Numbered from the stretch's first letter, positions 1 to 5,288 are shown. The stretch: 61,147 nucleotides of DNA from Fidelibacterota bacterium (GCA_030746535.1 JASLML010000003.1:1-61147), one strand, 5' to 3'. Program-made: numbers and translations. Notes: generated by a model not told the origin, from the sequence alone.

Positions 1-3000
1 GATGGCCTTGATTCCTTGTCATTTACTGCCAACGAGAGTTTTTTCATGCTAGGCCGCATGGCCAATTATAATGGCACGAAGGTCATGACCGTTAAACGTT
101 CTAAACTAAAACAGCAGTCCAATAAAGACCTTTTATCCCTTCGACATAACAATAAAGATATATTTACTGAACAGTTAGTTAATAAAAACAGTGGCAACAG
201 ACTCACTCGTCACAACAACTCTACCTACAATGATTCTCTCTCACAGTTAAATACTCTAGAATCGGAGAAAGATCAATTTTATAAGCGTTATTATGAATTA
301 GATAGCCGGACACCAGGCTCCCGTAAGAAAAATAGATCCTTTAATCATGACGTCTCACAGTCACAGCGGAAGGTTGTGGAATCAGAGAAAAATATATTTG
401 ATAATCGATTTTCCAAATCAGATAAAGTCGACAAAAATATTTACAGCAATAGCCGTACTTCCAGGACTGATTCGACAGCCCTGGTCGTCTATCCCACAGA
501 GAATTTTATGGGTGAGATCAACATTCGTGTCATCGCTACTGACTCATCAGGTGCTTCTGTAGACGACATTATAACTCTCAACATAGAAAACTTCAATGAT
601 GCACCATTTGTGGCAGATGCGCATGATGATATCGTAGTTTATGTGGGAAGTGAGCCGGTGTTATTGTACCAACAACCTAACTTAAGTTATTGGACCGGAT
701 ATCAGGCTTACATGCAATACGCGTACGGTCCTGACAATTTAGGTGTTTTCGATGATCCTGATATGCTCTCAGGTGACATTCTGACCATTACCGCACAGCC
801 ATTGGACGAAACACTGGTAACATTAGATTATAATTCAGGTGGTCCATATGAGTCTGCGTCACTCACCCTGTCTGTTGAGAATGGACCGGGTGAAACAGAT
901 ATCATACTGAGTGCCGCGGATATAGCTGGGCAATCCGTTTCTGATACGTTTCACGTAACCATAGCACAGGCTCCTAACGGTTATTTTGGCCTTCCAAAAA
1001 CTATTTCTGATGTTTCATTAGCTTTATCTGTCTATGCCACAGACCTTGACGGAGACGATGATGTAGACGTTTTAGGAACAGGCTTTAAGACCAATGGTTT
1101 CTTATGGTGGGAGAACGATGGAAGCCAAGTTTTTACTGAGCACAGCCTTGAGGGTGAAGCCGACAACATCAATTCCGTACACGCTGCTGATTTGGATGGA
1201 GATGGCGATATGGATATTCTGGAGGCAGGCCATAAAATTGAATGGTTTGAGAATGATGGAAGCCAAGGATTTACTAATCACGTTATTGATAGTGAATTTA
1301 ATGATGCAATTTCTGTTTATGCTACTGATGTTGATAGTGACGCAGATATAGACATTTTGGCAGCAGGAAACAACATCACCTGGTTTGAGAATGATGGTAA
1401 TCAAAATTTCACAGAACATCCAATCATTACCTGGTCCGATTGCCAGTACTCAAATACCTGCGGAGGCGCTCGTGACGTTTACGCCACCGATGTAGATGGT
1501 GACGGCGACGTAGATGTCCTGGGGGCAACATATAACACTCAGGTTCCTGTTAATAATTATAAAATTATATGGTGGGAGAACGACGGCAGTCAGAGTTTTA
1601 CAGAGCACACTGTCGATGATGATTTTTCTGGCGCTTCTTCTGTTTATGCCACCGATATAGATGGTGATGGCTATATAGATATCCTTGGAGCAGCGACAGG
1701 AGCAGATGATATCACTTGGTGGCAGAACGATGGTGAGGAAAATTTCACAGAGCACACTATCGATGATGATTTTGATGGGGCCTACGATGTCTATGCTGCA
1801 GACCTTGACGGTGATGGTGATATGGATATTCTTGGTGCCGCACAAAATGCCAATGACATTGTCTGGTGGGAGAACAACGGCAGCCAGGGTTTTACCAGAA
1901 ACAACATTACCATGCCCTATTACCAGTTAGATGGTGCTAGATCTATTTACGCCTCTGATGTAGATGGCGATGGAGATTTAGACGTTTTAGGAGCAGCCGG
2001 GGATTATGGGATAGATGGTCCAGCAAATGGCAGCATTACTTGGTGGGAGAACAATGGAAATAATCCGCCAATAGTCACAACTAATCTGCCGAACGTTACC
2101 ATTGATGAGGATACTTACAGCGCAATAATTATTTCCGCTATGGAAGAACATTTTACAGACACAGATGCAGAAGATATTTTGTCGTATACGGCAAGTGCTC
2201 TGGGAGCCGGTCTTGACTCTCTATCTATAAACTCTGGCCTTATCGTATATCCAACGGAAAACTTTGCGGGTTACATCAACATTATGATTATTGCTAGTGA
2301 TATGTACGGTGAATCAGTGGCCGACACTATGATGCTCACTATTGAAAATATAAACGATGCCCCGGTAATAATAGAGTCATTACCGGACGTTACCATCGCC
2401 GAAGATGATTTTGGTGCAGTAATCATACCAGTCCTTGAAGCGCATTTTGTTGATATAGATGAAGGTGATATACTTTCCTATACTGGGATTGCTTTGAGTG
2501 AGGGTCTTGATTCCTTGTCATTTAGTACTGATGATAGTTTTAACGTCATGGCCAGTTATCATGGATCCAGGATCATGACCGTCAAGCGTTCTGAAATGAA
2601 AAATCGTCAAGATGGTAGGATATTATCACCCTTGCAGAATAATAGGAATAAATCAGTTAAGCAGGATATATTGTCTTTTAGAGCAGATACCGATATTCTA
2701 AATACACGCCAGAATACCTCCAATAGCCGGACCGATTCTACGACCCTAATTGTCTATCCCACAGAGAACTTTGTAGGTGACATTGGTATTATAATTATCG
2801 CCAGTGACATAACTGGTGAGTATGCAGTGGATACTTTAACGGTCACTATTGAGAATATCAATGATAGTCCTTTAATGGCAACAATTGCTGATCAAACAAC
2901 GAATGAGGATACGGCCACGACTGTCATCTTATCAGCGACAGATATAGATGGAGACAGTCTAATATTTTCTGCTTCTTCAGTGGATACAAATATTACAACT

Positions 3001-4623
3001 ATTGTCATAGATGACACTTTGACTATTACACCAGAAACAAACTGGAATGGTCAAACAGAGATTACTGTGATCGTGATTGATAACGGACTGGGTTCTCTTT
3101 CAGACACAATATCGTTTACATTTACAGTGAATGCCATCAATGATACTCCGGTACTTATAGCAGCATTGCCGGATGTTACCATAGATGAAGATGATTTTGG
3201 CGCGGTTATTATACCCGTCCTTGAAGTCCATTTTGTTGATATAGATGAAGGGGATATACTTTCCTACACTGGGAGTGTTTTGGGTGAGGGACTTGATTCA
3301 CTGTCATTCAGCACGGATGATAGTTATAACGTAATGGGTAACATGTCCAATTATCATGGATCCAGAATCATGACCGTCAAGCGATTTGAAATGAAAAATC
3401 GTCAAGATGGTAGGATATTATCACCCTTGCAGAATAATAGGAATAAATCAGTTAAGCAGGATATATTGTCTTTTAGAGCAGATACCGAAATTCTAAATAC
3501 ACGCCAGAATGGCCCCAATAGCCGGATCAATTCTACAGCTCTAATTGTCTATCCAACAGAGAACTTTATGAGCGATGTTGAGATAATGATTATTGCCAGT
3601 GACATAGCTGGTGAGTACGCAGTGGATACTTTAAAACTCACTATTGAGAATATCAATGATGCGCCATTTGTGGCAAATTCCATAGCTGACATTGAGGTGT
3701 ATGAAGACAGTGAGCCGGTAACATTGAATATCAATGGTGTTTTTGATGATTTTGATATTGCTGTGGGCGACAGTCTGACCATTACTGTTATTTCCCTGGC
3801 CGATACGCTTGTAACAGTGGAATATGATTCAAATAATTTGCCATTTCTTGTATTTACGGAAAATGGCAATGGCGAGACGGATATAATTGTTACAGCTACA
3901 GACCTGATTGGATTGACTGCAAATGATACGGTTCACGTTACTATCCTGCCTGTAAATGATGCACCGATAGAGTTTGGCCTCTTAAATCCTGCAGATAGTA
4001 CGGAATTAGTGATAACACCCAATGATATCAGTCAGGAAATGAACCTTATGATAAGATGGGAATCCAGCTACGATATAGAAGGTGATGATTTAAGCTATGA
4101 GTTTGTACTTGGAATCGATGGTACAGGTGCACCGGTATTAATTGATACAGTGTTGTCAGATACCGTGTTAAACATTCCATACCAGGATCTGGCTGAACTT
4201 ATAGGGATGTTAGGTCATACCAGCATAAGTGGAAACTGGACGGTGTTTACTACAGATAGTGATGACACAACAATGTCAAATGATGTTTGGAATATTTTTA
4301 TTGATGCAGGTGGTGTTCTGTCAATACATGGAGATATTATTCCTGATGTGTATGCTCTGTATCAGAATTATCCTAACCCATTCAACCCAACGACAATACT
4401 GCGCTATGATTTACCTGAAGACACACAGGTAAGAATTACGATTTATGATATCATGGGTCGTGAAGTCAGGACATTGTTTAATAACCAACAAAGTGCCGGC
4501 TATAAATCAGTTGTTTGGGATGCCACCAATGATTTAGGGCAGCCAATATCAGCAGGAGTATATTTATATACTATTGAAGCAGGAGGTTTTAGACAAACAA
4601 AGAAGATGATACTTCTTAAATAA
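1..4623 (+). CDS. Giant secreted/surface protein (3' part, 5' end outside window): cadherin-like/VCBS modules, seven FG-GAP/VCBS repeats, C-terminal T9SS type A sorting domain
   Basis: Frame 1 is open to the left edge (DGLDSLSFTANESFF...), so the track start at 16 is internal. Seven DxDxDG-type motifs lie between ~1040 and ~1990. C-terminus YALYQNYPNPFNPTTILRYDLPEDTQVRITIYDIMGREVRTL...GVYLYTIEAGGFRQTKKMILLK is typical of T9SS sorting domains. Confidence 0.9.
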   Translation, partial: DGLDSLSFTANESFFMLGRMANYNGTKVMTVKRSKLKQQSNKDLLSLRHNNKDIFTEQLVNKNSGNRLTRHNNSTYNDSLSQLNTLESEKDQFYKRYYELDSRTPGSRKKNRSFNHDVSQSQRKVVESEKNIFDNRFSKSDKVDKNIYSNSRTSRTDSTALVVYPTENFMGEINIRVIATDSSGASVDDIITLNIENFNDAPFVADAHDDIVVYVGSEPVLLYQQPNLSYWTGYQAYMQYAYGPDNLGVFDDPDMLSGDILTITAQPLDETLVTLDYNSGGPYESASLTLSVENGPGETDIILSAADIAGQSVSDTFHVTIAQAPNGYFGLPKTISDVSLALSVYATDLDGDDDVDVLGTGFKTNGFLWWENDGSQVFTEHSLEGEADNINSVHAADLDGDGDMDILEAGHKIEWFENDGSQGFTNHVIDSEFNDAISVYATDVDSDADIDILAAGNNITWFENDGNQNFTEHPIITWSDCQYSNTCGGARDVYATDVDGDGDVDVLGATYNTQVPVNNYKIIWWENDGSQSFTEHTVDDDFSGASSVYATDIDGDGYIDILGAATGADDITWWQNDGEENFTEHTIDDDFDGAYDVYAADLDGDGDMDILGAAQNANDIVWWENNGSQGFTRNNITMPYYQLDGARSIYASDVDGDGDLDVLGAAGDYGIDGPANGSITWWENNGNNPPIVTTNLPNVTIDEDTYSAIIISAMEEHFTDTDAEDILSYTASALGAGLDSLSINSGLIVYPTENFAGYINIMIIASDMYGESVADTMMLTIENINDAPVIIESLPDVTIAEDDFGAVIIPVLEAHFVDIDEGDILSYTGIALSEGLDSLSFSTDDSFNVMASYHGSRIMTVKRSEMKNRQDGRILSPLQNNRNKSVKQDILSFRADTDILNTRQNTSNSRTDSTTLIVYPTENFVGDIGIIIIASDITGEYAVDTLTVTIENINDSPLMATIADQTTNEDTATTVILSATDIDGDSLIFSASSVDTNITTIVIDDTLTITPETNWNGQTEITVIVIDNGLGSLSDTISFTFTVNAINDTPVLIAALPDVTIDEDDFGAVIIPVLEVHFVDIDEGDILSYTGSVLGEGLDSLSFSTDDSYNVMGNMSNYHGSRIMTVKRFEMKNRQDGRILSPLQNNRNKSVKQDILSFRADTEILNTRQNGPNSRINSTALIVYPTENFMSDVEIMIIASDIAGEYAVDTLKLTIENINDAPFVANSIADIEVYEDSEPVTLNINGVFDDFDIAVGDSLTITVISLADTLVTVEYDSNNLPFLVFTENGNGETDIIVTATDLIGLTANDTVHVTILPVNDAPIEFGLLNPADSTELVITPNDISQEMNLMIRWESSYDIEGDDLSYEFVLGIDGTGAPVLIDTVLSDTVLNIPYQDLAELIGMLGHTSISGNWTVFTTDSDDTTMSNDVWNIFIDAGGVLSIHGDIIPDVYALYQNYPNPFNPTTILRYDLPEDTQVRITIYDIMGREVRTLFNNQQSAGYKSVVWDATNDLGQPISAGVYLYTIEAGGFRQTKKMILLK
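2380..2860 (+). repeat. Intragenic repeat copy 1 (cadherin-like module plus basic insert)
   Basis: Nearly identical DNA to 3175-3655, offset about 795 bp; e.g. gaaatgaaaaatcgtcaagatggtaggatattatcacccttgcagaataatagg occurs in both. Confidence 0.9.
3175..3655 (+). repeat. Intragenic repeat copy 2
   Basis: See copy 1 at 2380-2860. Confidence 0.9.
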
Positions 4624-4739: not shown

Positions 4740-5288
4740 CTATTCTTTCAGATACCGGTAAAGCGTAGCCTTGGAAACACCCAGGGTATCGCAGATATCT
4801 GAGATCGAGTTGGAATGATCAGCCATCATTGATTTAGCCAAAGCAACTTTCTTATCATCTAACTTCTTAGGTCTGCCGCCAACTCTCCCACGAGCACGAG
4901 CTGAATCAAGTCCAGCTTTTGTTCTCTCGCGAATAATGTCTCGTTCAAACTCTGCAAGAGCTCCAAAAACATGGAAAATTAACTTTCCACCACTTGTACT
5001 TGTATCAATACTTTCCTGAAGGCTCTTAAAATAGATCTCCCGTTCATTTAGCAGAATCACTACTTCGATTAAGTGTTTCAAACTGCGACCAAGCCGATCC
5101 AGTTTCCATACAACAAGCGTATCACCTTTACGAAGAAATGATAAAGCTTCCTCAAGCCCTGGTCGATCAGTCTTTGCTCCACTGGCCGTATCACTGAATA
5201 TTTGATTACAGCCATCTTTCTTTAAAGCATCTTCCTGTAAATCTGTGCTTTGGTCATTCGTTGAAACCCGCATATATCCAATTTTCAT
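4740..5288 (-). CDS. Serine recombinase (resolvase/invertase, Pin/Hin-like)
   Basis: MKIGYMRVSTNDQ...VVWKLDRLGRSLKHL...GALAEFERDIIRERT...GRVGGRPKKL plus C-terminal HTH (ISDICDTLGVSKATLYRYLK). Confidence 0.95.
   Translation of the reverse strand: MKIGYMRVSTNDQSTDLQEDALKKDGCNQIFSDTASGAKTDRPGLEEALSFLRKGDTLVVWKLDRLGRSLKHLIEVVILLNEREIYFKSLQESIDTSTSGGKLIFHVFGALAEFERDIIRERTKAGLDSARARGRVGGRPKKLDDKKVALAKSMMADHSNSISDICDTLGVSKATLYRYLKE

What the first reader, a model, noticed from the sequence alone, without database searches (positions are those of the whole stretch)
1..3560. Basic, Asn/Gln-rich insert modules at the same site in three cadherin-like repeats of a giant T9SS protein
Between the conserved strands GLDSLSF and (L/V)VYPTENF the protein carries inserts sharing a signature: ~1-490 (MANYNGTKVMTVKRSKLKQQ...TSRTDSTALVVYPTENF), 2540-2765 (MASYHGSRIMTVKRSEMKNRQDGRILSPLQNNRNKSVKQDILSFRADTDILNTRQN...TLIVYPTENF) and ~3320-3560 (MSNYHGSRIMTVKRFEMKNRQ...). 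A sister module at ~2205-2265 has no insert (GLDSLSINSGLIVYPTENF), so the domain boundary is clear. The inserts are K/R/N/Q-rich inside an otherwise acidic Ca-binding-type protein and start with the same MTVKR motif. They could be extruded ligand-binding loops, an in-frame mobile coding element (compare Rickettsia palindromic elements), or a processing/cross-linking segment. I do not recognise the family.
Basis: partly seen in the sequence, partly recalled or inferred. Interest (0 to 1): 0.66.

Follow-up and report, generated by a model that had tools for sequence, protein, structure and literature searches.

The report
Basic hairpin loops in acidic surface protein
A giant, very acidic surface protein of an uncultured Marinimicrobia bacterium carries long, positively charged loops at one fixed spot of a repeated domain; the loops have relatives across the phylum, are not mobile DNA, and most likely make electrostatic contact with something acidic.

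Summary
Three inserts (window 25-480, 2524-2745, 3310-3540; 152, 74 and 77 aa) sit in the same hairpin of one cadherin-like repeat subtype in a type IX-secreted giant protein; a sister repeat has a 3-residue turn there. The source is a Ca. Neomarinimicrobiota MAG. Outside inserts and sorting domain the ORF has 10 Lys/Arg in 1147 residues; the inserts hold 53 of 72. No Pfam, NCBIfam, PHROG or PDB sequence match covers them. Homologous inserts occur at the same site in genomes from several families of the phylum, with a core [VI]xT[VIL]KRSxxxK...SRTDST; more distant families keep the site and usually the positive charge. No other protein context was found. The mobile-element idea is rejected: no palindrome, no RNA fold, no dispersal, purifying selection (dN/dS 0.19-0.46). 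Inserts 2 and 3 share 102 identical bases while their domain flanks are ~84% identical, so the insert was copied or gene-converted within the gene. The gene itself looks horizontally transferred. Some longer inserts contain ~38-aa internal repeats. Best reading: an extruded, mostly disordered basic loop on an Ig-like module, probably binding a polyanion or neighbouring acidic repeats. The function is inferred, not shown.

The parts
1..4623 (+). Giant surface protein ORF (1540 aa, 5' end cut by the contig start): cadherin-like/Big_9 repeats, six FG-GAP_3 stretches, type IX sorting domain at the C terminus
25..480 (+). Insert 1 (152 aa, net about +12); orthologue with internal repeats in G043 (L016)
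79..102 (+). Conserved insert core KVMTVKRS
2092..2376 (+). Sister repeat of the same subtype without insert (hairpin NSG at 2230-2238): natural empty site
2386..2523 (+). N-terminal half of the repeat that carries insert 2 (strands up to GLDSLSF)
2524..2745 (+). Insert 2 (74 aa, net +4)
2569..2592 (+). Conserved insert core RIMTVKRS (I, T, K, R invariant among the aligned inserts of A5)
2592..2693 (+). 102-bp run identical to 3387-3488, wholly inside the inserts: within-gene copying or gene conversion
2746..2871 (+). C-terminal half of the repeat that carries insert 2 (LIVYPTENF ... IENINDSP)
3172..3309 (+). N-terminal half of the repeat that carries insert 3
3310..3540 (+). Insert 3 (77 aa, net +5)
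3364..3387 (+). Conserved insert core RIMTVKRF (insert 3 departs at the S)
3387..3488 (+). Second copy of the 102-bp identical run
3541..3666 (+). C-terminal half of the repeat that carries insert 3
4369..4620 (+). Type IX secretion C-terminal sorting domain (Por_Secre_tail / TIGR04183; FlgD_ig overlaps it)

Best explanation
The inserts are extended, mostly unstructured basic loops grown on one beta-hairpin of a subtype of cadherin-like (Big_9/Cadherin_5, tandem-95) repeat found so far only in Neomarinimicrobiota. Shown: fixed site, an empty sister site, homologous inserts at the same site in other families, a conserved core ([VI]xT[VIL]KRSxxxK at the start, SRTDST at the end), protein-level purifying selection, a ~38-aa internal repeat in some longer ones, and copying of the insert between repeats of one gene. 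Inferred: after type IX export the core forms a short strand or helix at the base of the loop, and the positively charged tip projects from an acidic stalk. There it makes electrostatic contact with a polyanion (acidic exopolysaccharide, LPS, extracellular DNA) and so anchors or bundles the giant protein; variation and gene conversion of the loop tune the contact.
For: Site, empty sister and lengths. Homologous inserts at the same site with invariant I-T-KR-K and SR..ST. More distant family members at the same hairpin, e.g. G139 VILVLKRKDIQK and G241 VMALKRKLH. In the sampled acidic cadherin-like ORFs most basic islands away from the N-terminal leader and the sorting domain are these hairpin inserts. 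Charge contrast. dN/dS 0.19-0.46 in inserts versus 0.11-0.20 in flanks. Homogenisation of inserts 2 and 3. Core strands modelled with pLDDT about 70-80, insert middle below 50.
Against: No ligand, binding assay or confident model: mean pLDDT 58.9 (11-row alignment) and 54.0 (8-row). The weak constraint on the middle of the insert also fits a tolerated loop. One of the two G241 inserts has net charge -1, so positive charge is not universal. G225 keeps only a short, non-basic version.
Confidence: 0.45

Rival explanations
1. Intramolecular electrostatic clamp: the basic loop folds back on, or bridges to, the acidic FG-GAP and cadherin repeats of the same or a neighbouring molecule, stiffening or bundling the stalk instead of binding an outside ligand.
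For: The rest of the ORF is extremely acidic (17.9% D+E, 1.5% K+R), so the loops have an obvious partner in the same chain.
Against: The two-repeat model is of low confidence and could not be examined for contacts. Many equally acidic cadherin-like ORFs of the phylum have no such loop, so it is not generally needed.
Confidence: 0.2
2. Functionally neutral loop expansion: the hairpin tolerates long disordered sequence that drifts, duplicates (about 38-aa units) and is spread by gene conversion, with no specific function.
For: dN/dS in inserts is about 1.5-3 times that of flanks, lengths vary from 3 to 152 aa in this one protein, internal repeats, low-confidence unstructured prediction, absent in several relatives.
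Against: dN/dS is still well below 1; invariant TxKR...K and SR..ST persist across families; positive charge is kept in most inserts although the sequence diverges.
Confidence: 0.2
3. Processing segment: the invariant Lys-Arg pair is a cleavage site for a secreted Lys/Arg-specific or kexin-like protease, nicking the giant protein into non-covalently associated pieces, as gingipain/HagA adhesin polyproteins are processed.
For: KR is invariant in the aligned inserts and reappears in distant ones; Lys/Arg are almost absent elsewhere in the ORF, so a Lys/Arg-specific protease would cut mainly in the inserts.
Against: The core is hydrophobic before KR and is modelled as a strand then a helix at the hairpin base, not an exposed linker; the insert lies within a domain, not between domains; no protease partner was sought.
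Confidence: 0.12
4. In-frame mobile coding element (Rickettsia palindromic element-like).
For: Near-identical copies at two sites of one gene.
Against: No strong inverted repeats or RNA fold; no copies in any other gene of the own genome or of 245 phylum genomes; always the same hairpin; divergence under purifying selection.
Confidence: 0.03

Closest known systems
Cadherin_5 (PF17892) / Big_9 (PF17963) / tandem-95 repeat (NF012211)
   Same: The host repeat is of this kind: ED start, DxD, P..NF.G strand, NDAP end; other repeats of the ORF score above the cut-offs
   Different: Here 74-152 aa lie where the sister repeat has a 3-residue turn. The insert-bearing repeats were not scanned singly over their whole length, and the sister repeat scores just below the PF17892 cut-off (25.4 vs 26.5 bits)
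Rickettsia palindromic elements (defining features from own knowledge)
   Same: In-frame coding insert of tens of residues, several copies
   Different: No palindrome, no spread to unrelated genes, fixed site in one repeat subtype
Gingipain/HagA adhesin polyproteins of Porphyromonas gingivalis (PMC10319874 on the RgpA proteinase-adhesin complex, seen in title and abstract only)
   Same: Type IX-secreted multi-domain adhesins; those are processed at Lys/Arg (own knowledge)
   Different: Inserts here are within a repeat, not between domains; cleavage untested
Dystroglycan cadherin-like / juxtamembrane domain (8yt8, 8uf4)
   Same: Among the weak Foldseek matches of the low-confidence model (probability 1.00 and 0.93, E 0.03 and 0.06), as expected of cadherin/Ig-like folds
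   Different: Query TM-score 0.42 or less; no sequence match to any PDB chain; not evidence of shared function

Membership tests
Cadherin-like / Big_9 tandem-95 repeat (host domain) | Profile match of the repeats of the ORF | tested here: met
   ORF: NF012211 119.8 bits (cut-off 90), PF17892 53 bits (26.5), PF17963 47.5 bits (23.6)
Cadherin-like / Big_9 tandem-95 repeat (host domain) | Compact repeat of about 90-98 aa without a long internal insertion | tested here: not met
   Insert-bearing repeats have 74-152 aa in one hairpin where the sister repeat has 3. They are therefore filed as a variant, not as standard members
Known domain covering the insert | Pfam, NCBIfam, PHROG or PDB sequence match over the insert | tested here: not met
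   Only insignificant matches (best E about 0.07-0.1); none in PDB sequences
Type IX secretion substrate | C-terminal sorting domain | tested here: met
   TIGR04183 40.2 bits (cut-off 23), Por_Secre_tail 27.1 bits (cut-off 27)
Rickettsia palindromic element-type mobile element | Palindromic DNA able to form a stem-loop | tested here: not met
   Only 11-14-nt imperfect inverted repeats, z-scores from -0.64 to 0.58 in insert stretches
Rickettsia palindromic element-type mobile element | Copies in several unrelated genes | tested here: not met
   Own genome: only this ORF; phylum: the matches read are in this repeat subtype, or chance
Protease-processed adhesin polyprotein | Cleavage at Lys/Arg in the mature protein | not testable with these tools
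   Needs proteomics
Polyanion-binding loop | Binding to acidic glycan, LPS or DNA that depends on the basic residues | not testable with these tools
   Needs a binding assay

The most novel reading that the evidence does not exclude
A phylum-specific kind of adhesin module: a standard cadherin-like repeat made into a ligand-binding or self-associating unit by a conserved basic loop cassette (anchor TxKRSxxxK ... SRTDST, with one or more ~38-aa units between) that is copied between repeats by gene conversion and travels between families with the horizontally transferred giant gene.
Probability: 0.3. Interest if true: 0.6.

Novelty: new variant of a known kind. Interest (0 to 1): 0.42.

Why it matters
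Neomarinimicrobiota are common uncultured ocean bacteria (own knowledge). In the open-access library searched, one paper mentions Marinimicrobia together with type IX secretion and none mentions Marinimicrobia with cadherin. A defined, repeat-borne basic loop gives a concrete, expressible target for asking what their giant surface proteins hold on to. It also gives a clean case, with a natural empty sister in the same chain, of how one hairpin of an Ig-like repeat becomes an evolvable variable site.

Tried and rejected
Mobile element: rejected. Known domain: none. Relatives in viral contigs or plasmids: none. Weak profile hits in family f15 (G063, G094, G096, G104): the two that were read (G096, G104) lie in an LptD-like outer-membrane ORF (my reading of the sequence, no profile run) and are chance. 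DNA tandem repeats in the inserts: none above threshold with TRF. The ~38-aa internal repeats show only at protein level; they are convincing in G004 and G043 (score above all 60 shuffles) but marginal in window inserts 1 and 2 (1 of 60 and 1 of 100 shuffles as good). Missing 5' part of the gene: not found elsewhere in the assembly. Insert and flank trees have few supported branches and are used only as distances. The Foldseek search of the low-confidence model gave no match below E 0.001 and is not used as evidence of function.

Full report
What is there. The window is a whole contig (G000:C33) of a 1.47-Mb, 85%-complete MAG. The named genomes that carry the closest inserts are Candidatus Neomarinimicrobiota. 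The ORF 1..4623 is cut at the contig start and ends with a type IX sorting domain; it holds six FG-GAP_3 stretches and cadherin-like/tandem-95 repeats. A relative in G043 with its N terminus (open frame of 3886 aa, L016) adds GLUG, laminin-G-like and Ig-like parts in front. The contig begins exactly within DGLDSLSF, a stretch repeated in the gene, so the break is probably an assembly break at a repeat (inference). The upstream part was not found elsewhere in the assembly.

The inserts. Between GLDSLS[FI] and the next strand ([LV][IV]VYPTENF) the three repeats carry 152, 74 and 77 residues, while the sister repeat has NSG. The charge contrast is extreme: 53 of 72 Lys/Arg are in the inserts, 9 near the C terminus and 10 in the remaining 1147 residues. 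The inserts total +21 and the rest -203.

Relatives. With an insert query, 6 of 101 genomes match, including the own genome. With the profile A2, 12 of 245 phylum genomes match at E 0.01. Four of these are weak hits in family f15; the two that were read lie in an unrelated outer-membrane-type ORF and are chance. In every other match the insert is at the same hairpin of the same repeat subtype. The core I-T-KR...K and SR..ST is invariant in the aligned inserts of A5, which come from several families. A scan of 84,980 species' genomes with the pattern R[TS]DST[AS]L[IV]VY found only four loci, all Neomarinimicrobiota; this depends on that one pattern.

Census of the subtype. With the first 46 aa of the repeat as profile, 22 of 244 phylum genomes match at E 1e-6. 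Reading them: inserts in f1, f5, f10, f11, f2, f23 and f30; no insert in the f20 members that were read (such as GLDTLLIGQYLDLIAIPSENF), in G144 or in G229:C138; a short one in G225. The distant inserts no longer align in the middle, but G139 (VILVLKRKDIQK) and one of G241 (VMALKRKLH) keep the core, and G040 and G049 keep the basic character. G241's other insert has net charge -1, so charge is a tendency, not a rule.

Control for the basic character. In acidic, mostly cadherin-like ORFs from the fetched loci (46,772 residues, some overlapping), basic islands fall mainly in N-terminal leaders, in the sorting domain, and in these inserts. A few lie elsewhere, e.g. in L019 (111-153), L072 (378-422), L073 (1598-1660) and L082 (135-179). 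Two further basic islands look like inserts in other repeat types, without the core: L072 (2328-2390) and L101/L106 from G046. So basic loops may have arisen more than once in such proteins (inference).

Evolution. Inserts 2 and 3 share a 102-bp identical run wholly inside the inserts. Over aligned codons they differ at 18 of 222 bases, the flanks at 45 of 276 (Fisher p 0.007); synonymous differences give dS 0.17 in the insert and 0.58 in the flanks (p 0.006). In protein distance both flanks are closer to G004 than to each other, but the inserts are closest to each other. The insert was therefore most likely copied or gene-converted within the gene. Across the pairs compared the inserts evolve under purifying selection (dN/dS 0.19-0.46) but less tightly than the flanks (0.11-0.20). 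Some longer inserts contain ~38-aa repeats: scores 74 and 69 against a shuffle maximum of 41 in G004 and G043; weaker in the window inserts.

Horizontal transfer. The segment 601-2100 (mostly FG-GAP) is 85% identical to G043 (another family) over 500 aa and absent from two genomes of the same genus. Seryl-tRNA synthetase (named from its sequence) is 60% identical to G043 and 76-78% to the same genus. The downstream neighbours differ: a resolvase gene and tRNA-Asp here, a trigger-factor-like ORF in G043.

Structure. The single-repeat model (11 rows) has mean pLDDT 58.9: core strands about 70-80, the core-motif region a strand then a short helix at about 54, the insert middle below 50. The two-repeat model is lower (54.0). 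Foldseek found only weak Ig/cadherin-like matches. These models support 'Ig-like core plus largely unstructured loop' and no more.

Mechanism. The insert is an open, selected, basic loop on a hairpin of a secreted acidic protein. The most economical function is electrostatic contact, with an outside polyanion (preferred) or with acidic repeats of the same or neighbouring chains. Cleavage at the invariant KR is possible because few other Lys/Arg exist in the chain, but it is untested. None of these functional steps is shown.

Verdict. Real, specific to this phylum as far as searched, not a mobile element, function open. A new variant of a known repeat, of moderate interest.

Noticed in passing
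window 4740-5288 (-): A serine recombinase (Resolvase PF00239 158 bits, HTH_7) stands directly downstream of the giant gene, convergent to it; whether it acts on the gene is unknown.
   Followed up: partly
window 601-2100 versus G043:C36:18094-19593: The giant gene looks horizontally transferred between families: 85% identical here versus 60% for seryl-tRNA synthetase, and this segment is absent from two same-genus genomes.
   Followed up: partly
L017:3520-3810 (G004): The G004 copy has a frameshift just before the insert-bearing repeat and a TAG inside the insert: decayed gene or sequencing error.
   Followed up: no
L101/L106 (G046:C2), around residues 1905-1945 of the 3207-aa ORF: A Lys/Arg/Ser-rich basic stretch (GKKLSTIRSRGKSKRSSINSNSSKKG) in a different repeat type of another giant type IX protein, without the core motif.
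   Followed up: partly
L072 reverse strand, residues 2328-2390 (G139): A second basic insert in a different repeat type of the same 3054-aa protein, before strand TDSLIISIDSVTHKANF.
   Followed up: no
L016:9883-11220 (G043): Two successive insert-bearing repeats in G043 are almost identical over the whole repeat, a recent duplication.
   Followed up: no
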